The notes under the pieces were generated by a model. The model made no database searches. It saw nothing but the letters and a program-made list of their open reading frames with translations, and was not told the DNA's origin. Shown here piece after piece: positions 30,776 to 41,928 of a stretch of 64,000 nt of DNA. The position numbers and the translations under genes are program-made. Origin of the DNA: Rubrivivax sp. (GTDB lineage Bacteria > Pseudomonadota > Gammaproteobacteria > Burkholderiales > Burkholderiaceae_C); NCBI GenBank assembly GCA_021300575.1, contig JAJTDM010000028.1:1-64000 (forward strand), read 5' to 3'. The stretch's first letter is position 1, and the number at the start of each line of letters is the position of its first letter.

Positions 30776-31720
30776 ATGTGGAGCGTGCTCTTCCTGACCC
30801 TGCCTACGCAACCGAACGCGGTGCGACTGCGCGTCTGGCGTGCGCTGAAGACCTTGGGCTGTGGGTCGATGCGAGACGGCGTCTATGTTCTGCCTCAGTC
30901 GAAGACGGCCCTTTTCGATCCCCTGGTGGCCGAGGTGCAGGCCCATGGCGGCCAGGCCAGCGTGCTCGAGCTCTCAGCCCCAAACGAGGCCCAGCGCGCC
31001 GAGATCCTGGCGCTGTTCGACCGTACAGAGGCCTATGCTCAGTGGAGCGTTGAAGCGCAGAATCTGGCGGCGGCCTTGCCTGTGCTGGCGGAAACCGAGG
31101 CCCGGCGGCGCTGGCGGGGCACTGCCGAGGCACTGCAGGCACTTCTGCGCATTGACTACTACCCCGCCGCGGCCGCAGAGCAAGCGCAGGCCGAGCTCGA
31201 TGCGCTGCGCCAGGCCCTCGATGCGCGCTTCTCGCGCGGTGAGCCGGTGGCACAGGCGCCACACGGAATCCCGCGCCTGGACGTGCGCAAGTTCCGGGGC
31301 AAGCGCTGGGCCACGCGCGAGCGACCCTGGGTCGACCGCCTGGCCTGCGCCTGGCTGATCCGCCGTTTCATCGACCCCGAGGCACGCTTCGTCTGGCTGG
31401 CCGACCCCGCCGGGTCCACGCCCGCACCCCGCGGCGCACTGGGATTCGACTACGACGGCGCTCGCTTCACGCACGTCGGCTCGCGCGTCACGTTCGAAGT
31501 GCTGGCGACGAGTTTTTGCCTGGACGCGGATCCGCGGCTGCAGCGCATCGCACGCACGGTGCACTTCCTCGACATCGGCGGCATCCCGGTGCCCGAGGCG
31601 GCCGGGCTGGAGGCGGTGCTCGCCGGTCTGCGCGAGGTTCACGCCGATGACGACTCACTGACCCTGGCGGCGGCGGCGGTCTTCGACGCCCTGCACGCTG
31701 CACCCGCAGGACCGGCATGA
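30776..31720 (+). CDS. chrB: Chromate resistance protein/regulator ChrB
   Basis: The 314-residue protein has the ChrB N-terminal winged-helix-like part (WSVLFLTLPTQPNAVRLRVWRALKTLGC) and the C-terminal domain with WVDRLACAWLIRRFIDPEARF, then VTFEVLATSF and VHFLDIGG. ChrB senses chromate and controls the operon. Its stop overlaps the chrA start (ATGA). The ATG at 30776 follows the AT-rich leader. Confidence 0.93.
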   Translation: MWSVLFLTLPTQPNAVRLRVWRALKTLGCGSMRDGVYVLPQSKTALFDPLVAEVQAHGGQASVLELSAPNEAQRAEILALFDRTEAYAQWSVEAQNLAAALPVLAETEARRRWRGTAEALQALLRIDYYPAAAAEQAQAELDALRQALDARFSRGEPVAQAPHGIPRLDVRKFRGKRWATRERPWVDRLACAWLIRRFIDPEARFVWLADPAGSTPAPRGALGFDYDGARFTHVGSRVTFEVLATSFCLDADPRLQRIARTVHFLDIGGIPVPEAAGLEAVLAGLREVHADDDSLTLAAAAVFDALHAAPAGPA

Positions 31721-33108
31721 CAACCGTCACGACAACCGTCACCGAAGCGTCGGCAGGCCCGATGGCCGCCCCCGCCTCGGTGAGCTTTGCCGAGGCCTTC
31801 CGCTTCTGGCTCAAGCTTGGTTTCATCAGTTTCGGCGGGCCTGCAGGGCAGATCGCGATCATGCACACCGAACTGGTGGAGCGCCGCCGCTGGATCAGCG
31901 AAAAACGCTTCTTGCACGCCTTGAACTACTGCATGCTGCTGCCCGGGCCTGAGGCCCAGCAACTGGCCACCTACATCGGCTGGTTGATGCACCGCACCTG
32001 GGGCGGCATCGTGGCCGGCGCGCTGTTCGTCCTGCCGTCGCTGTTCATCCTGATCGCGCTGTCGTGGATCTACCTGCGCTTCGGCGACATGCCGCTGGTC
32101 GCCGGCATCTTTTTCGGACTGAAGCCAGCGGTGACGGCCCTGGTGCTGCACGCCGCCCACCGCATCGGCACGCGGGCGCTGAAGAACCGCTGGATGTGGG
32201 GCATCGCTGCCGCGTCCTTCGTGGCGATCTTCGCCTTCGACACGCCGTTCCCGGCCATCGTGCTGGCGGCTGCGCTGATCGGCCACTTCGGCGCACGCCG
32301 CTGGCCGCAGGTGTTTGCGCTCGGCGGCGGACACGGCAGCGTCAAGGCCGGCTCCGGGCCCGCGCTGATCGACGATGACACACCGACGCCTCTGCACGCG
32401 CGCTTTTCTCGCAGCCACCTGGCGAAGGTCTTGGGCTTCGGGCTCGGGCTATGGCTGCTGGCGATGGCGGTGTTGATCGCTCTCAACGGCCTGCAGGGCA
32501 CGCTCACGCAGATGGGCTGGTTCTTCACGAAGGCGGCCTTGCTCACCTTTGGCGGCGCCTACGCGGTGCTGCCTTACGTCTACCAGGGAGCCGTCGAGAC
32601 GCATCAGTGGCTGAGCGGCCCGCAGATGATCGACGGCCTGGCCTTGGGCGAGACGACACCTGGCCCGCTGATCATCGTGGTGGCCTTCGTCGGTTTCGTC
32701 GGCGGCTGGCTGAAGCAGGTGTTCGGCCCGGAGGCGCCGTTCCTTGGCGGCGCTGTGGCCGCCACGGTGGTCACCTTCTTCACTTTCCTGCCGTCCTTCG
32801 TGTTCATCCTGGCCGGTGGGCCGGTGGTCGAGGCCACGCACGGCAAGCTGGGCTTCACGGCGCCGCTGTCGGCCATCACGGCGGCCGTCGTCGGGGTGAT
32901 CCTGAACCTCGCGATGTTCTTTGCGTACCACGTGCTGTGGCCCCAAGGCTTTGGCGGCCGCTTCGATGCGCTGTCGGCCCTCATCACCCTCGCCGCCGCG
33001 GTGGCGCTGTTCCGATTCAAGGTCGGTGTGATTCCGCTGCTCGGCGCCTGCGCGGCTCTGGGCTTGGCGGCGAGCTGGCTTGTACCTGTGTTCAACCTGA
33101 CCCACTGA
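31717..33108 (+). CDS. chrA: Chromate efflux transporter ChrA
   Basis: The 463-residue protein has two homologous CHR domains, each with FGGP/FGGAYAVLPY-type motifs; NYCMLLPGPEAQQLATYIGW marks the first and ALGETTPGPLIIVVAFVGF the second. It exports chromate from the cytoplasm. Translation is coupled to chrB. The Thr-rich N-terminus (MTTVTTTVTE) could be trimmed if the ATG for MAAPASVSF is used. Confidence 0.93.
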   Translation: MTTVTTTVTEASAGPMAAPASVSFAEAFRFWLKLGFISFGGPAGQIAIMHTELVERRRWISEKRFLHALNYCMLLPGPEAQQLATYIGWLMHRTWGGIVAGALFVLPSLFILIALSWIYLRFGDMPLVAGIFFGLKPAVTALVLHAAHRIGTRALKNRWMWGIAAASFVAIFAFDTPFPAIVLAAALIGHFGARRWPQVFALGGGHGSVKAGSGPALIDDDTPTPLHARFSRSHLAKVLGFGLGLWLLAMAVLIALNGLQGTLTQMGWFFTKAALLTFGGAYAVLPYVYQGAVETHQWLSGPQMIDGLALGETTPGPLIIVVAFVGFVGGWLKQVFGPEAPFLGGAVAATVVTFFTFLPSFVFILAGGPVVEATHGKLGFTAPLSAITAAVVGVILNLAMFFAYHVLWPQGFGGRFDALSALITLAAAVALFRFKVGVIPLLGACAALGLAASWLVPVFNLTH

Positions 33109-33118
33109 AGGACTCCCA

Positions 33119-34039
33119 ATGGATGCTCAACTGCAAGACCTCCCGTTCGAGCCTGCCGCGCTGCAGGGCCTGTCGCCCAGGCTGATGACCAGCCATCACC
33201 AGAACAACTACGCTGGCGCTGTCAGGCGGCTCAATGCCATCCGTGCGCAGCTCGCCGGTACGGACTTCACCGCGTCAGCAGCGTTCCAGCTCAACGGCCT
33301 CAAGCGTGAAGAACTGATCGCCACCAATTCGATGTTGCTGCACGAGCTCTACTTCGGCAGCCTGGGCGGCGACGGCTTGACGATGGAGCCTCCCGTGAAG
33401 CTGGCGCTCGACGCGAACTTCGGCAGCGTCGCGCGATGGCGCGAGGAGTTCGTCGCCTGCGCCAAGGCGCTGGGCGGGGGCTCGGGATGGATGCTATTGG
33501 TGTTCCAGCCGCGCGAGGGCACGCTGGTCAACCAATGGGCCGCCGACCACACCCACGTGGTAGCCGGTGGCGTGCCGATCCTGGCGCTGGACATGTACGA
33601 ACACGCCTACCACATGGACTTCGGCGCGGCAGCCGGTGCCTACGTTGACGCGTTCATGAACAACATCAACTGGGCTGCGGTGTACGAGCGCTACCAGAGC
33701 GCGGTGCATGCGGCCAGCGAGCCCTTCGGCGCCGGCCAGGACGAGCTCGGTGACGCGCTGCTGCTCGATGTACGCAGAGCCGGCGTGTTCGAGAAGGCGC
33801 GCACGATGATTCCCGGCGCGCGCTGGTGCGACCCGAGCGCGGTCGCCTCCTGGTCCGCCGATCTGCCTGCCGGCCGCGAAGTGGTCGTGTACTGCATCTA
33901 CGGCCATGAGGTTGGCCGCTCCACGGCGATGCGGCTGCGCGCGGCGGGGCTGAACGCCCGCTACCTGCGGGGCGGTATCAACGACTGGCAGGCGGCGGGC
34001 CGCCCCGTTCTGGACAAGCCCGCGGGGCCTGCCTCTTGA
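33119..34039 (+). CDS. Fe/Mn superoxide dismutase fused to a rhodanese domain
   Basis: Residues 1-195 are an Fe/Mn-SOD: SHHQNNY (H26/H27), H75 in MLLHELYF, and D158 and H162 in LALDMYEHAYH supply the metal ligands. The usual Trp two before the final His is Tyr here. Residues 205-300 form a rhodanese domain with the active-site Cys C259 in VVYCIYGHEVGR. SOD-type proteins (ChrC) occur in chromate operons; the rhodanese domain could use thiol sulfur. It lies 10 bases after chrA. No signal peptide, so cytoplasmic. Confidence 0.9.
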   Translation: MDAQLQDLPFEPAALQGLSPRLMTSHHQNNYAGAVRRLNAIRAQLAGTDFTASAAFQLNGLKREELIATNSMLLHELYFGSLGGDGLTMEPPVKLALDANFGSVARWREEFVACAKALGGGSGWMLLVFQPREGTLVNQWAADHTHVVAGGVPILALDMYEHAYHMDFGAAAGAYVDAFMNNINWAAVYERYQSAVHAASEPFGAGQDELGDALLLDVRRAGVFEKARTMIPGARWCDPSAVASWSADLPAGREVVVYCIYGHEVGRSTAMRLRAAGLNARYLRGGINDWQAAGRPVLDKPAGPAS

Positions 34040-34281
34040 CTGGCGCGCCGCGAGTCAAGGTCGCACTGCTGTATCCCGGCGATCGGGCCGGCCGCGACCG
34101 CGCAGACCCTGCGGCCAGCCGCTTCGCTGCTCTGTTCGAAGCTCTGGCTGCCGCCGGCGTGAGCGCGGAGCGGGCGGTTCATCACGATGACCTCGCCGAA
34201 GAGCATGACGTTCAACCCGGTCAGTTGGCCGCTGTCGCCCATCAAGCGACATTCGTCCCCGTGCCAGAAAACTTCCCCTGA
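34036..34281 (+). pseudogene. Truncated N-terminus of a conserved chromate-operon protein
   Basis: The frame overlaps the SOD-rhodanese stop (GACTGG context). Its first 55 residues look like real protein (VKVALLYPGDRAGRDRADPA, ASRFAALFEALAAAGVSAER, VHHDDLAEE). This resembles the N-terminus of Cj0069-type proteins that I recall beside chromate genes; that assignment is from memory and tentative. After about 34200 the sequence loses family character and the frame ends at 34281. The break suggests the operon's 3' end was cut off. Bases 34282-34399 show nothing recognisable. Confidence 0.45.
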
Positions 34282-34399
34282 AGACACGCAAGCAACCCAC
34301 AGAACGCGCCATGTTCCCTCAAGGGGGTGCATCTGCGATACCCCGTTCAACGTATTCGCGAGATCACACCAAGTGAACAAGAGCGCCGCATCCTTGACC

Positions 34400-35173
34400 T
34401 CACGCAGCAATGGCGAACACCCGGGCTGGAAACCCGGAGCCCGCTTTCGGCTTGGGCCACGAGGCCACGACCACCGCACCGGCTTCCGGCACATCTGCCA
34501 ACGATGCCAACAACTCGATCTGCCAAGCATCGCGCTCGAGGACATAGCGTTCGAGCGATACGTCGCCCCGGCTCATCGACAAACCGCTGTCTGTATCGGT
34601 GGTCTCGTGTCCGCAGGCCGTGGCGCGGCGCTCCTCGAAGACAAACCGAAGCACATCGAGACTCCAGCCAGGAAAGTGCGCGGTACCTGAGGCATCGCGG
34701 TTCATCATTTGGCTCTGGGACGGCCAGCGCTTGGACCACCCGCTGCGCTTGGCGACGAACGCGCCTGCGGGGATCTGCCCGTGTTTGCACTCCCAGGCGC
34801 GCACGTCATCCATGTGGATGCAGTAATCCGGATCCCGCTCCACCTGCGCTTCGATGTCCAGTACGACTAGCGGTAGCATCATCTCGGCAACCGCAATCTC
34901 GTCCAGAAACCGCTTGCCTTCGACGAAGTGCGCGCCGGGGTCCACGTGCGTGCCCCATTGGCCGACATGGCGGTACTCATGCGCCAGGAATCCGTGACCC
35001 AGCGTACCGATGCCTTTGCGATGGTGGTAGAGCGTGGTGCGCTGGGCAGGTGCAAAGCTCTCGCAGTGCGGGATGCTCTCGTCAAACGCGTGCGTCAGGT
35101 CGATGAAACGAGCGCCGCTGATCTGCGCCAGCCAGGGCCACAACGAGCGAGCGGTCGACACCGGGTCTTGCAT
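34400..35173 (-). CDS. Cyclase/kynurenine-formamidase-fold hydrolase
   Basis: The 257-residue protein has RFIDLTHAFDESIPH and QWGTHVDPGAHF, the metal-binding HxGTHxDxxxH motif of the cyclase family; the first His is Gln (Q72), while H76, D78 and H82 remain. Members hydrolyse formamides, isatin or lactone-like rings. The C-terminal SLADVPEAGAVVVASWPKPKAGSGFPARVFAI is typical. It is the last gene of a five-gene operon, starting 2 bases after the cupin stop, so it may open a ring or hydrolyse an intermediate in the acid-sugar pathway suggested there. Confidence 0.85.
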   Translation of the reverse strand: MQDPVSTARSLWPWLAQISGARFIDLTHAFDESIPHCESFAPAQRTTLYHHRKGIGTLGHGFLAHEYRHVGQWGTHVDPGAHFVEGKRFLDEIAVAEMMLPLVVLDIEAQVERDPDYCIHMDDVRAWECKHGQIPAGAFVAKRSGWSKRWPSQSQMMNRDASGTAHFPGWSLDVLRFVFEERRATACGHETTDTDSGLSMSRGDVSLERYVLERDAWQIELLASLADVPEAGAVVVASWPKPKAGSGFPARVFAIAA

Positions 35174-35175
35174 GG

Positions 35176-35553
35176 TCAAACGGTCTTGAGTTGCCGTACG
35201 GTTTTCTCGTTGACGACGTTGCCGGTGTTCAAAGTCGTGTTCGGCTCGACGAGCAGGCAATGCACTTCATCGCTCAAGGCCACCGGGCAATGCTCGACAC
35301 CGCGCGGCACCACAATGTACTCGCCAGCGTCGACAAACACATCCCCGCCCTGCTCAGCGCGCAGCTTCATCAGCAAACGCCCGTGCACCACGAGGAACAG
35401 CTCGTCCTCGTTCTCGTGATGGTGCCAATGGAACTCACCTTTGAACTTGGCGAACTTGAGTTGCATGTGGCCGATATCGCCGCCGACACGGGGCGACCAG
35501 AACTCGTCGACCCCGGCAAAGGCTTGGGCGATGTTGACCTTGGCGAGCTTCAT
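35176..35553 (-). CDS. Cupin-domain protein
   Basis: The 125-residue single cupin has FHWHHHENEDELFLVVHGRLLM (metal ligands HxH...E) and a second motif PRGVEHCPVA. Such proteins are isomerases, lyases or binding proteins for sugars and small acids. Its ATG overlaps the TIM-barrel stop by ATGA. The place in an acid-sugar operon makes an isomerase or epimerase role plausible but unproven. Confidence 0.85.
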   Translation of the reverse strand: MKLAKVNIAQAFAGVDEFWSPRVGGDIGHMQLKFAKFKGEFHWHHHENEDELFLVVHGRLLMKLRAEQGGDVFVDAGEYIVVPRGVEHCPVALSDEVHCLLVEPNTTLNTGNVVNEKTVRQLKTV

Positions 35554-36221
35554 GCCTGAACTCCTTCGAGCGTGAGGATACTGTCCATCTGCGACCGCAG
35601 TGGATCGACCGGGAAGGCGCCATCGAACAGCGCGCTGCCCACCGTGAAGGCCCAGACGCCCGCCTTACGCATGGCCGCGATGCGCGAGGCCCGGTCGATG
35701 CTGCCTGCCGCGATCACCGGCAATTCGACGGCTTCAACAACACGGCGGGTCAGTGCAGGTACGTCCCCGGCAAAGCGGTAGGCCAGCAGGTCCAAGCCCT
35801 GCACGCCGGGCAATGCTGCCAGGCGTTTGGCGTCGTCGACGATCTCGTCGGCTGAGCCCGTCAGGCGCGTCGGGTGCCCGACCGTATGGCCCGCAAACGG
35901 GAAGTAGCGCAGCTTCCGGTTGGCAAGGATACGGCTCGCTTGCTCGGCCTGCCGGCCTCCAAGAACGAAGTCGACTTCGAGCCGCGCTGCCGCTTCCACC
36001 GACGCCAGCTCGGAATCGGCGGTGGTGCTCACCACTTCGAGCATCAGTTGGCGGCCATCGGCTTTGATGCGCCGCGCCAGCGAGTCGAGCTCGATCCAGG
36101 GCAGCCCCACATCCTTGAACCCGACGTAGCGAACGGCACTGCCACGCACGCGCTCGTAGACCGCGTGGGCATCGGCGACCGTGCGGTCGTCCTTGGTCAG
36201 CATGAAGACGAAATGGCACAT
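35550..36221 (-). CDS. Small TIM-barrel protein, HisA/phosphate-binding type
   Basis: The 223-residue protein shows alternating strands and helices (MCHFVFMLTKDDRTV, VRYVGFKDVGLPW, VDFVLGGRQ, VQGLDLLAYRFAGD, LPVIAAGSIDRASRI, AGVWAFTVGSALFDGAF). The last two fit the phosphate-binding GS loops of HisA/TrpF-like barrels. I do not know a characterised homologue. In acid-sugar operons this slot is normally an aldolase or isomerase, so it may act on the phosphorylated product of the kinase/dehydrogenase pair. It is 4 bases after pdxA2 and overlaps the cupin start. Confidence 0.7.
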   Translation of the reverse strand: MCHFVFMLTKDDRTVADAHAVYERVRGSAVRYVGFKDVGLPWIELDSLARRIKADGRQLMLEVVSTTADSELASVEAAARLEVDFVLGGRQAEQASRILANRKLRYFPFAGHTVGHPTRLTGSADEIVDDAKRLAALPGVQGLDLLAYRFAGDVPALTRRVVEAVELPVIAAGSIDRASRIAAMRKAGVWAFTVGSALFDGAFPVDPLRSQMDSILTLEGVQA

Positions 36222-36225
36222 GGGT

Positions 36226-37233
36226 TCAACTCCGTGGAGGTTGCCGCATCGTTCGCGCGGCGGCCAGTTCGTGGGCCGTTCGCAGTGCGACGCGCAGGCT
36301 GCTGATGTCCGCGACGCCGCGGCCGGCGATGTCGAAGGCGGTGCCGTGATCCGGGCTCGTGCGCACGAAGGGCAGGCCAGCGGTGACGTTGACCCCGTCC
36401 TCCACACCCAGCAACTTGATGGGGATCAGCCCTTGATCGTGGTATTGCGCCACGACCAGGTCGTAGCGACCACGGCGCGCCTGCATGAACACCGTGTCGC
36501 CAGGCAGCGGGCCCGTCGCATCGATACCCTCAGCCCGCGCTGCGGTCACGGCAGGCGCGATCAGGTCGATGTCTTCGCGCCCGAAAAGCCCCCCCTCGCC
36601 TGTATGCGGATTGAGCCCCGCAATCGCGATGCGAGGCCGGGCGATGCCCATGTCGAGCAAGGTTCGATGTGCCAGCCGGATGATGCGCAGCTCGCGCGCC
36701 ACCGACAGCTGCGCCACCGCCTGCAGCAACGAGCAGTGCACCGTCACCAGCATCGTGCGCAGCTGGGGGTTGACCAGCATCATCGCCGTGTCCACGCTGG
36801 AGCTGAGCTCGGCCAGCATTTCGGTGTGCCCTGGATACGGCACACCGGCCGCGGCCAGCGCCTCTTTGTGAATGGGCGCCGTGCAGATGGCGTCGATCTG
36901 CCCGCTCTTGGCCAGATCGATGGCTTTGGAGATGGCCTCGAACGCAGCCCTGCCCGTAGCAGCGCTCACCTGTCCGTGGGCGAAGTCGTCGCCGACCACG
37001 CCCACATCGAGTACATCGAGCACGCCGGGCGCAGGGTGATGATCGGCGACGCCAGTGATGCGACGAACGCGAGCCGTCGGCGCCCAAGCGATGGCAGCGC
37101 GCACAAGGGCATTCGCCGGCCCGATCACGAAAGCCGGCAGTTCCTGCATCGTCTTGGCATCGGCCAGCGTGCGCACGACGATCTCGGGTCCGATGCCGGA
37201 GACGTCGCCCACAGTGACCGCCACCGGCTTCAT
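36226..37233 (-). CDS. pdxA2: PdxA2-type 4-phospho-acid-sugar dehydrogenase
   Basis: The 335-residue protein belongs to the PdxA fold: VTVGDVSGIGPEIVVR, CTAPIHKEAL, YPGHTEMLAEL, AGLNPHTGEGGLFGREDID, AQYHDQGLIPIKLL and FVRTSPDHGTAFDIAG are all present, including three metal-binding His. Neighbouring a DUF1537 kinase, it is more likely a 4-phospho-threonate/erythronate dehydrogenase than the vitamin B6 enzyme. Its start overlaps the kinase stop (ATGA). Confidence 0.88.
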   Translation of the reverse strand: MKPVAVTVGDVSGIGPEIVVRTLADAKTMQELPAFVIGPANALVRAAIAWAPTARVRRITGVADHHPAPGVLDVLDVGVVGDDFAHGQVSAATGRAAFEAISKAIDLAKSGQIDAICTAPIHKEALAAAGVPYPGHTEMLAELSSSVDTAMMLVNPQLRTMLVTVHCSLLQAVAQLSVARELRIIRLAHRTLLDMGIARPRIAIAGLNPHTGEGGLFGREDIDLIAPAVTAARAEGIDATGPLPGDTVFMQARRGRYDLVVAQYHDQGLIPIKLLGVEDGVNVTAGLPFVRTSPDHGTAFDIAGRGVADISSLRVALRTAHELAAARTMRQPPRS

Positions 37234-38345
37234 ACAGCGACTCCCATCAGTTCATCGACGCAGGCGACCAACGTGCGCGCGTGGCCGAAGCCGCCCGCTT
37301 TGGTGACGATGGGCAAGCGGCCTGAGGGGAAGTCAAGCAGCGCCAGGGGCACACCGGGCTCGACCTCCTTCAGTACCTCCATTGAGCGTGCCTGCAGCGC
37401 TTGCGCAAGCGCCTTGGCCGTTTCGCCGCCTGTGGCCACGACACCGTCACACTGGCCATTGGCAATCGCGTGGCACGCTTCGGTTGCCAGCGAAGCTGAA
37501 GCCAGCCAAGGAGCCTGCGGCTCATCGGCAGTGGCCAACACTCTCATCTTCGGCCGCTCGAGCCGAAGAACAGCAGCTTGTTCGCGCGAGGTCGGATGTC
37601 GGCTGCCGATCAATACCCATGGCGAGGCACAGACCGGCATGCGTGGAGGCGGGTTCGCCAGATCGTTTCCGGGCGCGCCCAAGGCCTGGGCCAACGCGCG
37701 TGCGATGCCGGTGGAGCCGGCCCAAAGAATGCTGCGATCTGCGCAGAACCGCCGCGCTACGAGCGCCAGTTCGACTTCGTCGCGAACGTCAACAATCAGG
37801 GAACGCAGGCCCCGATCGAACGCCGAGCTGGCGGCGTCGGCGTCGGAAGCCACTGCAAGCTGCACATCGAGCGCAGCAAACAGTGCCGGCACAGACGACT
37901 CGGTGACGGGACTCAGCGGATCGCGCGCAAATGCGGTTCGGTGAACCTCGACGCCATGGACGAAAACGCGACCGCCTTGCGTGGTACGCCCTGCGGCGGG
38001 AAACGCCGGGACAATCAGCAACCGCCCACGCCCGCTGGCCTGCCACGCCGCAGCGCACTCGGTGGCCAGCGGACCGCGCAGCGTGGAGTCGAATTGCTTG
38101 ATCAGCACATCGGCTTGGGCCCAAGCCCGTGCGCAGCGGGCCACGCGTCTGCCGGCCTCGTCGGCGGTGCAGTGCCGGCTGTCCGTGTCCACACTCCACG
38201 CACCCGGCATGGCGGCGTGGCGCCCGCCTTGGGCCGCCAGCTGTTCGACGTCGAGCGCCACCTGGGCCCCGCCGCAAAGCCGTGCAAACGCCACGGCACC
38301 ATCCGTGGCACTGGTGAAGTCGTCGGTGACGATGCGCACTTGCAT
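37230..38345 (-). CDS. Four-carbon acid-sugar kinase family (DUF1537)
   Basis: The 371-residue protein has RIVTDDFTSATDGAVAFA at the start (DDF-T motif), FDSTLRGPLATE in the N-domain, and IGSRHPTSREQAAVL and VVATGGETAKALAQAL in the C-domain. DUF1537 kinases phosphorylate threonate, erythronate or related acids. It is the first gene of the operon, divergent from the MocR regulator. Length is slightly short for the family (usual about 410-430). Confidence 0.88.
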   Translation of the reverse strand: MQVRIVTDDFTSATDGAVAFARLCGGAQVALDVEQLAAQGGRHAAMPGAWSVDTDSRHCTADEAGRRVARCARAWAQADVLIKQFDSTLRGPLATECAAAWQASGRGRLLIVPAFPAAGRTTQGGRVFVHGVEVHRTAFARDPLSPVTESSVPALFAALDVQLAVASDADAASSAFDRGLRSLIVDVRDEVELALVARRFCADRSILWAGSTGIARALAQALGAPGNDLANPPPRMPVCASPWVLIGSRHPTSREQAAVLRLERPKMRVLATADEPQAPWLASASLATEACHAIANGQCDGVVATGGETAKALAQALQARSMEVLKEVEPGVPLALLDFPSGRLPIVTKAGGFGHARTLVACVDELMGVAV

Positions 38346-38370
38346 GGAACTGGAGTCTGCGTGGAATGAT

Positions 38371-38400
38371 CCAACACTGGCATACCAAAACAGTCCAGAA
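38371..38400. promoter_or_regulatory. Candidate MocR operator in divergent gap
   Basis: The 115-bp gap contains CCAACACTGG, CATACCA and CAGTCCAG (CTGGACTG on the minus strand). CTGG-type and ATACCA/GGTAT half-sites resemble direct repeats bound by MocR regulators such as TauR and GabR. Half-site assignment is tentative, and no clean -35/-10 pair is visible. Confidence 0.35.
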
Positions 38401-38460
38401 TTAACCAACCATTCGACGTCCTGCCTACACAGCCTGTCCCGGAGTCTTTGCAAACCTCAC

Positions 38461-39900
38461 ATGCCGGTACTTCCCGAGTTGTTGCCCGCCTGGGCTGCGC
38501 CCCTGACCCGCGTGACCGGAGCACGGCGCATAGGCACTGCAGACTTGGTCGAGCAGTTGCGAGCGGCGCTTCAAGACGGCGCCCTGCCGCCGGGTGCTGG
38601 CCTACCCACCAGCCGTGGACTGGCGGAACAGCTCGGCGTCTCACGCAACACTGTTGTGGCGGCGTACACGCAGCTCACGCTGGAGGGTTGGCTGCAAGGA
38701 CGAGGTCGTGAAGGCACGTTCGTGGCCGAGATCCAGCGAGCACAGTGGCGCGCGACGCGCGACCGCACGCCGGCACTTCTGAAACGCGTTGGCCAGGGCC
38801 GTGTGGTCAGCGTGCCGGCAGAGCTGGACTGGAGACTCGGCCAATCGAGCGCGATTCGATTGCCGCAGACGGCATGGGAGCGCGCCAGCCGCTACGGCGG
38901 GCGGTTCCAGCCACCGATTGGCTACGGTGACCCGGCGGGGGCCGTGGCGCTACGAGAAGCGATTGCGCGCGCCTTGGCGCGGCTGCGCGGCTTGCGGTTG
39001 GGCGCCGAACATGTTCTCGTCACGCAGGGCGCGGCGTCGGCGCTGGACTTGATCGTCGAGGCGTTGGTGATGCGCGGCGATGTTTGCGCTGTCGAAAACC
39101 CCGGCTACCCACGCATCACGCAGTTGCTGCAGCGCCAAGGCGCGGCGCTTCGGCACGTGCCGGTGGATGACCAAGGGCTGGTCGTGCGTGCCGCCTTCGA
39201 TGGCGCGACGGCCCCGGCGCTGATCCACGTGACGCCGGCGCATCAGTATCCGGTGGGCGTGCGCCTGTCGCCAGCTCGTCGACGCGAACTGATTGAGCTG
39301 GCCCGACGACACAGCACGCTGATTGTCGAAAACGAGTACGACCACGAGTTCATTCACGCGGGCCAGCACCATGCGCCTTTGTTTGCGGTAGCACCCGAAC
39401 GCGTCGTGCTGGTGGGCACCTTCGCCAAGGCCGTCAGCCCCTCTTTGCGCCTGGGCTACATTGTGGCCACGCCCAGAATCATCCAACAATTGGCTGCGCT
39501 GGTGGAGCGTACGAAGCGACATGTGTCGTGGCCGGGGCAGCATGCGATGACCTGGTTGTTGGAGTCCGGCGAGTTCGACCGGCACTTGCGGCGGGTTCGC
39601 CGCCAGAGTGCTCGTCTGGCGGAACAACTCGAGCACGGCCTTGAGCGGTGGCGGGGTGTCCTGCATGCTGTGGGCGAAGCAGGAGGTCAGCATGTGCTGC
39701 TGCTCACCGGCACGGCAAACGGCGCGAAGCGACTGCAACAGACGCTATCCGCTCGGGACGTTGTGCTCGATCCGATCGATGCCTTTGCTGCAGGAACGAC
39801 CGGATGGCAGGGCGTTTTGATGTCCTACGGGCACATGCGAACAGGCGAGCTGCGTGCGGCAATGGTGCAGCTCGATGAAGCAATGGCGCGTATGGCGTAG
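38461..39900 (+). CDS. MocR-family (GntR plus aminotransferase) regulator
   Basis: The 479-residue protein has a GntR winged helix (about 22-90, LVEQLRAALQDGALPPGAGLP) with the recognition helix SRGLAEQLGVSRNTVVAAY, a linker, and a fold-type I aminotransferase-like domain with NEYDHEF (D294) and FAKAVSPSLRLGY (PLP lysine K323). MocR proteins use PLP and an amine or sugar-derived effector. Divergent from the DUF1537 kinase gene, it is the natural regulator of that operon. Confidence 0.9.
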   Translation: MPVLPELLPAWAAPLTRVTGARRIGTADLVEQLRAALQDGALPPGAGLPTSRGLAEQLGVSRNTVVAAYTQLTLEGWLQGRGREGTFVAEIQRAQWRATRDRTPALLKRVGQGRVVSVPAELDWRLGQSSAIRLPQTAWERASRYGGRFQPPIGYGDPAGAVALREAIARALARLRGLRLGAEHVLVTQGAASALDLIVEALVMRGDVCAVENPGYPRITQLLQRQGAALRHVPVDDQGLVVRAAFDGATAPALIHVTPAHQYPVGVRLSPARRRELIELARRHSTLIVENEYDHEFIHAGQHHAPLFAVAPERVVLVGTFAKAVSPSLRLGYIVATPRIIQQLAALVERTKRHVSWPGQHAMTWLLESGEFDRHLRRVRRQSARLAEQLEHGLERWRGVLHAVGEAGGQHVLLLTGTANGAKRLQQTLSARDVVLDPIDAFAAGTTGWQGVLMSYGHMRTGELRAAMVQLDEAMARMA

Positions 39901-40176
39901 TGCTGATGCGCTGGGCCAAGAACCGATCACGGAATGTCCGGTCTCGTTGACCTGGAGTCGCAGCAGTGGGTCGCCAGAAGCCGTCCTACAGGCCACCCCC
40001 CTGATCTCGCTGTCCATTTGACCCAGATGCTTGGCGCTCAGTCCGTTCAAGCCTTCTGGCACCCGTGGCAAGACCTGCTGGCACCGCGGACGTCATGGTG
40101 CCAGCGCCCGACAAGCGGCGCTGGGATCGGTGGCCTCATTCCCCTCTTGGCTGGGCCGTCGCGGACAATCAGTCTG

Positions 40177-41478
40177 ATGGCAGACCTGGATCACTCCAGC
40201 CCCGTTCTCATCGCCGGCGGCGGCATCGGCGGCATGGCGCTGGCCCTGACGCTGCACCAGATCGGCGTGCCGTGCCAGGTGCTCGAAGCCGTGCCCGCAC
40301 TCAAGCCGCTGGGCGTGGGCATCAACCTGCAGCCCAATGCCGTGCGCGAGCTGTACGACCTGGGCCTGGGCGAGCAGGTGCTGGACACCATCGGCCTGCA
40401 GGCGCGCGAATGGGCGCTGGTGGGGCGCAACGGCCACGACGTCTACAGCGAGCCGCGCGGCCTGCGGGCTGGCTACCGCTGGCCGCAGTACTCGGTGCAC
40501 CGCGGGCAGTTGCAGATGCTGCTGTACCGCACGGTGCTGGAGCGCCTGGGTCCGCAGGCCGTGCAGCTGGGCCAGCGCGTGGTGGGCTACCGTCAGGACG
40601 AGCACGGCGTCACGGCCTTGGTCGAGTCACGCGACGGCCGCCGCCACGAACAGCGCGGGCGCCTGCTGGTGGCCGCCGATGGCCTGCACTCGGCCATCCG
40701 CGCGCAGATGCACCCCTCTCAGCCCCCCATCCAGTGGGGGGGCGCCATCATGTGGCGCGGCACCACGCCGGGAGTGCCCATCCGCACCGGCGCCTCCTTC
40801 GTCGGCCTGGGCTCGCTGCGCCACCGGGTGGTGCTGTACCCGATCTCACCCGCTGACCCGCAAACCGGCCTGGCCACCATCAACTGGATCGCCGAGATCA
40901 CGGTGGACAACTCCCAGGGCTGGACGCACGGCGACTGGAACCGGCGCGTGGCGCTGGAAGACTTTGCCCACCACTTCGCCGACTGGACCTACGGCTGGCT
41001 GGACGTGCCCGCGATGCTGCGCGGCGCGCAGGAGATCTTCGAGTACCCCATGATCGACCGCGACCCGGTGCCCACGTGGGTGGACGGCCGCGTGGCGCTG
41101 AAGGGTGACGCCGCACACGTGATGTACCCCGTGGGCTCCAACGGCGCCAGCCAGGCCATCGTCGATGCGCGCGTGCTGGGCGCGCAGATGCTGGCGCATG
41201 GCGTCACTTCGCAGGCACTCACGGCCTATGACGAGCGCCTGTGCGCCGACATCTCCGCCCTGGTGCTGCGCAACCGCGGAGCCGGCCCCTTCGGTCTGCT
41301 GGGGCTGGTGGATGAGCGCTGCGGCGGCGTCTTCGACCACATCGACGACGTGATCCCGGCCACGGAGCGCGAGAGCTTCATGGCCCGCTACAAGGCCGCC
41401 GCCGGCTTTGCCATCGAGACCTTGAACGCCGCACCATCCACCATCCCGCACGGGGCGCGTGTGGGGGCGGGCGGGTAG
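40177..41478 (+). CDS. FAD-dependent monooxygenase, salicylate-hydroxylase-like
   Basis: The 433-residue protein has the FAD-binding VLIAGGGIGGMALALTL at the N-terminus and LKGDAAHVMYPVGSNGASQA (GD motif) near residue 310. The DG motif is seen in LLVAADGLHSAIR. Related to group A flavin hydroxylases of aromatic or heteroaromatic acids. It is not linked to a pathway cluster here. The 276 bases between it and the MocR gene hold no recognisable gene. Confidence 0.88.
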   Translation: MADLDHSSPVLIAGGGIGGMALALTLHQIGVPCQVLEAVPALKPLGVGINLQPNAVRELYDLGLGEQVLDTIGLQAREWALVGRNGHDVYSEPRGLRAGYRWPQYSVHRGQLQMLLYRTVLERLGPQAVQLGQRVVGYRQDEHGVTALVESRDGRRHEQRGRLLVAADGLHSAIRAQMHPSQPPIQWGGAIMWRGTTPGVPIRTGASFVGLGSLRHRVVLYPISPADPQTGLATINWIAEITVDNSQGWTHGDWNRRVALEDFAHHFADWTYGWLDVPAMLRGAQEIFEYPMIDRDPVPTWVDGRVALKGDAAHVMYPVGSNGASQAIVDARVLGAQMLAHGVTSQALTAYDERLCADISALVLRNRGAGPFGLLGLVDERCGGVFDHIDDVIPATERESFMARYKAAAGFAIETLNAAPSTIPHGARVGAGG

Positions 41479-41523: not shown

Positions 41524-41928
41524 TCACCTGGCGCGGATCAGTTGGGCTCCAGCAACCCTGGCCGCACCCTTGTCGAATGTCCAGAGCGGCTGCTCGCCGG
41601 CCTGGGTCGCCAATGCGATGTGAAGGCAGTCGGCGAAATCGGCTGAACCCTCCCGGTAAAGCTGAAGCGCCACTTCCAGGGCGCGCTCGGATTCGAAACT
41701 CAGCTCGGAGGCCGAATACAAGTTCGAGAGGACCAGAAGGACATCGTCCTTGACATATCCGAAGCTGGCTCGCAGCACCCACTCAAGTTCCAGGGCCACC
41801 GTCACAGGCACATAGAGTGATTGCCCCTCTGCGATACAGCGGTCTATCAGACGCTTGGCCACGGCGAGCTGGCCGCTGTCGTCCTGCACGATGTAGCGCA
41901 CGAGGACGTTCGTGTCGAGCGCCGGCAT
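41524..41928 (-). CDS. vapC: VapC-type PIN toxin
   Basis: The 134-residue PIN RNase has D5 in MPALDTNVLVRYI, acidic residues E47/E49 in VALELEWVL, GSADFADCLHIALA (D97/D100) and TFDKGAAR (D119). The active site is complete. It starts 7 bases after the AbrB antitoxin stop, in the usual antitoxin-first order. Confidence 0.88.
   Translation of the reverse strand: MPALDTNVLVRYIVQDDSGQLAVAKRLIDRCIAEGQSLYVPVTVALELEWVLRASFGYVKDDVLLVLSNLYSASELSFESERALEVALQLYREGSADFADCLHIALATQAGEQPLWTFDKGAARVAGAQLIRAR

What the first reader, a model, noticed from the sequence alone, without database searches (positions are those of the whole stretch)
34400..38345. Five-gene operon combining acid-sugar kinase, PdxA2, a TIM barrel, a cupin and a cyclase
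Seen: five minus-strand genes packed with ATGA overlaps or 2-4 base gaps, divergent from a MocR regulator. Known: DUF1537 kinase plus PdxA2 act on threonate/erythronate-type acids, usually with an aldolase or an isomerase. Inference: here a small HisA-like barrel, a cupin and a cyclase-fold hydrolase replace them, so this may be an unreported branch that starts from a ring compound (opened by the cyclase) and ends via the barrel. No transporter is attached.
Basis: partly seen in the sequence, partly recalled or inferred. Interest (0 to 1): 0.8.

Follow-up and report, generated by a model that had tools for sequence, protein, structure and literature searches.

The report
Operon with unstudied PdxA-linked barrel enzyme
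This is a real five-gene bacterial operon, probably for breaking down a small four-carbon hydroxy acid or amino acid, and it contains an enzyme family that no database model names although it is found in many bacteria and is sometimes joined to well-known enzymes in a single protein.

Summary
The five-gene operon is real: DUF1537 kinase, PdxA paralogue, HisA-like barrel, cupin and cyclase, divergent from a PdxR-type MocR gene. The same set recurs in four of 98 other loci compared. The core is smaller: kinase, PdxA and barrel, sometimes with the cupin. The barrel passes no Pfam or NCBIfam cut-off. A GTDB scan gave 498 stretches encoding relatives. It is fused to PdxA in three loci, to a cupin in four, and to methylglyoxal synthase in 28. 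So it most likely acts on the small phosphorylated product of PdxA. The cyclase is an accessory (6 of 99 loci), not the defining entry step. Neighbours point to hydroxy-amino acids more than to sugar acids: BhcC-like or threonine aldolases lie within 10.5 kb in 14 of 34 kinase+PdxA+barrel loci and in 0 of 65 other barrel loci. The same genome holds a separate OtnK/OtnC-type locus. Preferred reading: 4-hydroxythreonine (or a close analogue) is phosphorylated, PdxA makes amino-hydroxyacetone phosphate, and the barrel isomerises and deaminates it to triose phosphate. Substrate and barrel reaction are inferred, not shown. New variant of a known kind.

The parts
37230..38345 (-). DUF1537 kinase (SBD_N + NBD_C), 371 aa
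   Evidence: PF07005 118.1 bits (cut-off 25), PF17042 61.4 (28.3). D-threonate kinase model 171.5 bits against 450, 3-oxo-tetronate kinase 78.2 against 350: neither equivalog is met.
36226..37233 (-). PdxA paralogue, 335 aa; inferred oxidative decarboxylase of a 4-phospho-3-hydroxy acid
   Evidence: PF04166 350.3 bits; TIGR00557 368.8 (cut-off 290.35). The genome has a second PdxA over the cut-off at C106 and a divergent PdxA-like gene at C16.
35550..36221 (-). Uncharacterised HisA-like phosphate-binding TIM barrel, 223 aa
   Evidence: no Pfam or NCBIfam model over cut-off. AF2 model pLDDT 96.2. The 50 Foldseek rows shown are mostly general TIM barrels. 28 invariant columns in 60 relatives.
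35176..35553 (-). Small cupin, 125 aa, with WHHH...E and GVEH motifs
   Evidence: Cupin_2 41.7 bits (cut-off 27.2). Fused to the barrel in L031, L033, L040, L042.
34400..35173 (-). Cyclase-family hydrolase, 257 aa, nearest solved kin a cyclase family protein and isatin hydrolases
   Evidence: PF04199 114.5 bits (cut-off 23.1). QWGTHVD motif in the five betaproteobacterial copies aligned.
38461..39900 (+). Divergent MocR-family regulator, PdxR type, with a Lys in the TFAK context expected for PLP (recalled)
   Evidence: NF052282 PdxR 331.4 bits (cut-off 320); 3 of 3 MocR proteins tested (window, L052, L048) pass it.
38346..38460 (.). Shared MocR/kinase promoter region; GGTTGGTT half-site near 38398-38414
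   Evidence: TTGGTTCT / GAACCAA words in L052, L054, L055, L057, L058; GGTTGCTC in L048-L051; the window keeps only a partial match.

Best explanation
A catabolic operon for a four-carbon hydroxy acid carrying an amino group, most likely 4-hydroxythreonine or a close analogue. The DUF1537 kinase makes the 4-phosphate. The PdxA paralogue oxidises the 3-hydroxyl and the product loses CO2, giving 3-amino-1-hydroxyacetone phosphate (AHAP). The barrel binds this C3 phosphate and enolises it, in the manner of HisA or triose phosphate isomerase, to the imine of glyceraldehyde phosphate, which hydrolyses to triose phosphate and ammonia. The cupin assists the barrel. In this Burkholderiales version the cyclase first opens a lactone or amide form of the substrate. 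The MocR protein senses the amino compound through PLP. Shown: the genes, their recurrence, the fusions and the neighbour counts. Inferred: the substrate, every reaction step, and the roles of cupin, cyclase and MocR.
For: PdxA-barrel in one open frame in L037, L038, L039 puts the two in one pathway, probably as consecutive steps. The barrel is also fused to methylglyoxal synthase, which by established knowledge acts on dihydroxyacetone phosphate; of 28 fusion proteins with GGDQQ, 28 also have TGxTG and DxDLxALxRL and 26 VAHxxRK. In L089 a PdxA gene directly precedes such a barrel-MgsA fusion. The fused barrels group with PdxA-linked ones. Aldolase neighbours: 14 of 34 kinase+PdxA+barrel loci against 0 of 65 other barrel loci. 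Mesorhizobium L128 has ltaE, tdh, glycine C-acetyltransferase, homoserine kinase and threonine synthase beside the module; Bradyrhizobium L129 has part of this set. The regulator passes the PdxR model. DUF1537 proteins can phosphorylate 4-hydroxythreonine (Thiaville 2016, not seen itself, as cited in passages of PMC7954711). 6e85 (named D-threonate 4-phosphate dehydrogenase) and 2hi1 (named PdxA 2) fall outside the group holding the barrel-linked and B6 PdxA.
Against: The window locus and 19 more of the 34 kinase+PdxA+barrel loci have no aldolase neighbour; 8 of the 14 positive loci are Rhizobium. The aldolase queries came from two of the loci themselves, and the comparison groups differ in taxonomy. 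The kinase's best named relative is D-threonate kinase, though far below cut-off. 8 of 11 Acetobacteraceae genomes searched, all with PdxA-barrel(-cupin), have no DUF1537 match. In Chloroflexi the barrel sits with an FGGY kinase and varying other genes and no PdxA match. The barrel-linked PdxA do not form one well-supported group (51 of 53 rows, 80/88). No catalytic residue of HisA was matched.
Confidence: 0.38

Rival explanations
1. One reading: a C4 sugar acid (threonate, erythronate or a relative) is released from its lactone by the cyclase, phosphorylated, oxidised by PdxA, and the barrel decarboxylates or isomerises the 3-keto-4-phosphate on the way to DHAP.
For: DUF1537 and PdxA domains; best kinase relative is D-threonate kinase; cyclase-kinase-PdxA-barrel also stand together in Aeromicrobium L065 with an aldehyde dehydrogenase. 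No amino-acid gene was found beside the window operon itself.
Against: By established knowledge D-threonate needs only kinase and PdxA2 to reach DHAP, so a fused third enzyme is unexplained. Equivalog cut-offs for D-threonate kinase and D-threonate-4-phosphate dehydrogenase are not met. An OtnK/OtnC-type locus lies elsewhere in the genome. Amino-acid enzymes recur near related loci.
Confidence: 0.3
2. Vitamin B6 supply: the operon turns 4-hydroxythreonine into AHAP for PdxJ when PLP is low, and the barrel is a helper or a PdxJ-like ring-forming enzyme.
For: PdxR-type regulator; PdxA; a gene of the PdxY-like family (one member, L108, tested) directly precedes the barrel-MgsA gene in 9 loci, all among the 28 fusion loci.
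Against: The genome has PdxJ and another PdxA. No pdxJ or pdxH in the operon. The barrel also occurs with FGGY kinase and ABC genes without PdxA. The PdxR model is passed only narrowly.
Confidence: 0.12
3. Damage control: the PdxA-barrel pair removes wasteful phosphates such as 4-phosphoerythronate or excess 4-phosphohydroxythreonine.
For: 8 of 11 Acetobacteraceae genomes with PdxA-barrel(-cupin) have no DUF1537 match; all 11 have at least two PdxA over the cut-off.
Against: Amino-acid catabolic neighbours in part of the loci and divergent regulators; a kinase is close by in 34 of the 54 loci that have PdxA near the barrel.
Confidence: 0.1

Closest known systems
DUF1537/PdxA2 acid-sugar pathways (DtnK-PdxA2; OtnK-OtnC-OtnI)
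   Same: Kinase family and PdxA family; phosphorylation then oxidation of a C4 hydroxy acid.
   Different: No OtnC aldolase or OtnI isomerase in the operon; a barrel family instead; equivalog cut-offs for DtnK, OtnK and the D-threonate dehydrogenase not met.
4-hydroxythreonine recycling by DUF1537 kinases (Thiaville 2016, known to me through passages of PMC7954711 and PMC9997740)
   Same: Kinase plus PdxA on 4-hydroxythreonine is the proposed first half.
   Different: There the product feeds PdxJ and B6; here a barrel and cupin follow.
HisA phosphoribosyl isomerase
   Same: Fold and the C-terminal phosphate-binding half.
   Different: Below every HisA cut-off tested; its own set of invariant residues; not in a his operon.
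Beta-hydroxyaspartate cycle enzymes BhcC and BhcD
   Same: Some recurrent neighbours resemble BhcC and BhcD best.
   Different: Far below those cut-offs, and no such neighbour was matched at the window.
Isatin hydrolase / kynurenine formamidase type cyclases
   Same: PF04199 domain.
   Different: First His of the HxGTHxD motif (motif recalled) is Gln in the five betaproteobacterial copies.

Membership tests
DUF1537 kinase family | SBD_N and NBD_C domains over cut-off | tested here: met
   118.1 (25) and 61.4 (28.3) bits.
D-threonate kinase (DtnK) / 3-oxo-tetronate kinase (OtnK) | NCBIfam equivalog cut-off | tested here: not met
   171.5 against 450; 78.2 against 350.
PdxA family | TIGR00557 over cut-off | tested here: met
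   368.8 against 290.35; the three His at the positions of the E. coli metal ligands (ligands recalled) align.
D-threonate 4-phosphate dehydrogenase (PdxA2) | NF002891 cut-off and grouping with 6e85/2hi1 | tested here: not met
   335.6 against 583; those two rows lie outside the 58-row group (99/96); midpoint root, long branches, only these two rows.
C4 acid-sugar pathway | Operon holds an OtnC-type aldolase and/or OtnI isomerase | tested here: not met
   none in the operon. OtnK (578.4 over 350) and an OtnC-like gene (246.9 against 250) lie at C73.
C4 acid-sugar pathway | Enzymes act on C4 aldonic acids | not testable with these tools
   Needs purified proteins.
HisA | Pfam and NCBIfam HisA cut-offs | tested here: not met
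   21.1 against 23.6; 30.5 against 243.
PdxR-type MocR regulator | NF052282 cut-off | tested here: met
   331.4 against 320.
B6 biosynthesis operon | pdxJ/pdxH or pdxST in the operon | tested here: not met
   pdxJ lies on another contig.
Cyclase family PF04199 | Domain cut-off | tested here: met
   114.5 against 23.1.
Cyclase family PF04199 | HxGTHxD metal motif (recalled) | tested here: inconclusive
   QWGTHVD in five copies, EHIGTHVD in L065; metal binding not tested.
Methylglyoxal synthase (fused relatives only) | NF003559 cut-off and conserved motifs | tested here: met
   128 against 84 for L102 (but TIGR00160 104.8 against 146.9 not met); 6 of 6 genomes searched, two of which also have a separate MgsA; motifs.

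The most novel reading that the evidence does not exclude
The barrel founds a new enzyme family that turns the PdxA product AHAP into triose phosphate and ammonia. Together with the neighbouring glycine-dependent aldolases of related loci it would close a route that assimilates glycolaldehyde plus glycine through 4-hydroxythreonine to triose phosphate, an analogue of the beta-hydroxyaspartate cycle.
Probability: 0.1. Interest if true: 0.85.

Novelty: new variant of a known kind. Interest (0 to 1): 0.56.

Why it matters
A barrel family with hundreds of relatives and no matching Pfam or NCBIfam model (tested on the window member) is tied by gene fusion to PdxA and to methylglyoxal synthase. In 8 of the 20 plasmid records listed it is labelled 4-hydroxythreonine-4-phosphate dehydrogenase, though the window member has no PdxA domain. 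Finding its reaction would correct that label, explain what can follow PdxA outside B6 synthesis, and could reveal how rhizosphere bacteria use hydroxy-amino acids.

Tried and rejected
Ectoine or hydroxyectoine catabolism: one Roseateles plasmid has ehu transporter genes beside the module, but the recurring ornithine-cyclodeaminase homologue tested (L048) scores higher for BhcD than for EutC (211.4 against 121.2); not pursued. Homoserine catabolism as the main role: of the loci whose annotation I read, homoserine kinase occurs in L128 and L129 and threonine synthase in L128 only; the known pea homoserine cluster is mentioned in passages of PMC10228743 (passages of PMC3333776) and no link to this module was seen there. 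Viral origin: two weak partial matches in viral contigs, none in phage records. An OMPDC/KGPDC-type decarboxylase motif (recalled) was looked for by eye and not found. FMO at 39934-41478 as a pathway gene: among the 99 compared loci it matches only the window strongly, with 53 bits in L041. The gene lists and the counts (PdxY-like), 101 and 102 rest on a rough ORF picker and may miss members; the locus counts come from tblastn maps and stop-free frames. L035 and L036 were left out of the 99 because they repeat L048 and L049. In one search I put L083 by hand in the MgsA class (29 loci), but its frame ends soon after the MgsA domain begins, so 28 full fusions were found. One search kept the 80 nearest of 498 relatives, so the sample is biased.
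Full report
Observation. The five genes are as described. Their coordinates, overlaps and domain content were checked, and the divergent MocR gene. The barrel was searched in 399 genomes of the window's family and found (E at most 1e-10) in 9, the window's own included. The five same-genus genomes listed there lack it. It was found in 9 of 399 genomes of the order (three of these nine also appear). G+C is 0.638 for 34001-36000, the lowest of the 2-kb steps, against 0.66-0.73 in the rest of the window. This suggests an accessory, possibly acquired, operon.

The barrel family. For the window member no Pfam or NCBIfam model reaches its cut-off. A profile finds HisA-type structures weakly, mostly through the C-terminal phosphate-binding half. 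The AlphaFold2 model is confident (pLDDT 96.2), and the 50 Foldseek rows shown are mostly general phosphate-binding and other TIM barrels, with query TM-scores of at most 0.68. 23 plasmid records hold it and no phage record does. Sixty relatives share 28 invariant positions, among them K36, D37, E62, H116 and R149, so one common reaction is likely (inference).

Contexts. In 99 loci, the window included, one search counted 34 with kinase and PdxA close by, 19 with PdxA only, 29 in the methylglyoxal-synthase class and 17 others. One of the 29, L089, also has a PdxA gene directly before its barrel-MgsA gene, so 54 loci in all have PdxA near the barrel; another, L083, has only the start of the MgsA domain. 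The window's full set recurs in L052 (Burkholderia ambifaria), L055 (Burkholderia sp.), L057 (Burkholderiales MAG) and L058 (Paraburkholderia MAG). Aeromicrobium L065 has aldehyde dehydrogenase, cyclase, kinase, PdxA and barrel in a row. A MocR match stands beside the module in 12 of 99 loci. Acetobacteraceae loci have LysR, PdxA and barrel, mostly with the cupin. In 8 of 11 such genomes no DUF1537 match was found, and all 11 have at least two PdxA over the cut-off. Chloroflexi loci L061, L063 and L073 and Acidobacteria L091 carry an FGGY kinase together with varying parts of a set of G1P-dehydrogenase-like protein, HAD-IIA phosphatase, ABC and GntR genes.

Fusions. PdxA-barrel in one open frame: L037, L038, L039. 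Barrel-cupin: L031, L033, L040, L042. Barrel-MgsA: 28 loci. In the barrel tree the MgsA-fused rows cluster in a group (95/95) with PdxA-linked rows (14 of the fused loci were in the tree; the label needs two changes, and 4% of bootstrap trees make it one). The Grimontia locus L117, with kinase and PdxA beside the barrel, sits among the fused rows on a long branch. In 9 loci, all among the 28 fusion loci, a gene of the PdxY-like family comes directly before the fusion. The one member tested (L108) scores 144.5 bits, equal to the pyridoxal-kinase cut-off of TIGR00687, but is below the cut-offs of PdxY (176.7 against 292) and PRK08176 (156.4 against 342).

Substrate. Against a plain sugar-acid role: the kinase and PdxA miss the D-threonate equivalog cut-offs; the same genome carries an OtnK gene (578.4 bits, cut-off 350) with an OtnC-like gene (246.9, cut-off 250) at contig C73; and by established knowledge D-threonate reaches DHAP with kinase and PdxA2 alone. 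The queries came from L029 and L033 themselves, and the groups differ in taxonomy. The window itself has none. Mesorhizobium L128 has low-specificity threonine aldolase, threonine dehydrogenase, glycine C-acetyltransferase, homoserine kinase and threonine synthase nearby, and Bradyrhizobium L129 has part of that set; neither is among the 99. The MocR protein passes the PdxR model. The Lys in the TFAK/TFSK context (PLP-lysine, recalled) is present in 10 of the 11 MocR proteins examined beside the module (the window, L048, L050-L052, L054-L058) and is Arg in L049 (repeats L035 and L036 and unrelated rows not counted; L062 not examined).

Literature. Zhang 2016 on DUF1537 is not held. Passages of PMC7954711 and PMC9997740 report that DUF1537 members can phosphorylate 4-hydroxythreonine and that PdxA2 can do the PdxA reaction. 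A table in passages of PMC4921024 lists a fusion of DUF1537 with a PLP-pathway gene. Searches for the gene set, for MgsA with a TIM barrel, for 4-hydroxythreonine with rhizobitoxine and for AHAP names (listings and abstract starts only; two searches returned nothing) showed no account of this barrel. Much subscription literature is not in the library.

PdxA tree. With 62 rows, 6e85 and 2hi1 (the PDB entries named D-threonate 4-phosphate dehydrogenase and PdxA 2), 4jqp and the C16 gene lie outside a 58-row group (99/96) that holds the 53 barrel-linked and 5 other PdxA. The barrel-linked rows are not one well-supported group: 51 of 53 at 80/88, the two actinobacterial rows apart. The root is the midpoint, several branches are long and only two PdxA2 rows were used, so this is weak support.

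Cupin and cyclase. Separate cupins keep the WHHH...E motif in 16 of 17 examined (the pattern found none in L062), while 4 of 4 fused cupins have lost HxH. The cupin is therefore unlikely to perform an indispensable metal reaction in every version. The cyclase is closest to a cyclase family protein and to isatin hydrolases, and the first His of its metal motif (recalled) is Gln in the five betaproteobacterial copies.

Verdict. The operon is real, recurrent and coherent. The barrel acts on or beside the PdxA product with good likelihood. The amino-acid substrate and the deaminating isomerase chemistry are my best guess, at 0.38; the sugar-acid reading stays at 0.30.

Noticed in passing
window 30776-34039: A likely chromate-resistance group: a 314-aa protein, a ChrA-type chromate efflux transporter (31717-33108, 233.4 bits against 171.7) and a superoxide dismutase fused to a rhodanese domain close to ChrE (33119-34039).
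   Followed up: partly
window 39934-41478: FAD monooxygenase of the PRK07538 type directly after the MocR gene, not matched strongly in the other compared loci.
   Followed up: partly
window 41524-41928: PIN-domain, VapC-like protein; a possible toxin-antitoxin gene.
   Followed up: no
L102:9989-11056 and 27 further loci: Barrel fused to a methylglyoxal synthase domain with conserved motifs; in 9 of these 28 loci the gene directly follows a PdxY-like kinase gene, and in L089 a PdxA gene.
   Followed up: partly
L061, L063, L073, L091: Barrel in clusters with an FGGY kinase and varying parts of a set: G1P-dehydrogenase-like protein, HAD-IIA phosphatase, ABC and GntR genes; perhaps a second pathway for the same C3/C4 phosphate.
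   Followed up: partly
L053 and L060 around 10001: In Herbaspirillum and a proteobacterial MAG the barrel follows a five-gene group with an 875-881 aa protein and what look like stress-response regulators (judged by eye).
   Followed up: no
plasmid hits H1-H5, H10, H11, H17: Public annotation calls the barrel 4-hydroxythreonine-4-phosphate dehydrogenase; the window member has no PdxA domain.
   Followed up: partly
MocR/kinase intergenic of L052, L054, L055, L057, L058: Conserved inverted pair TTGGTTCT ... GAACCAA, a candidate MocR operator.
   Followed up: partly
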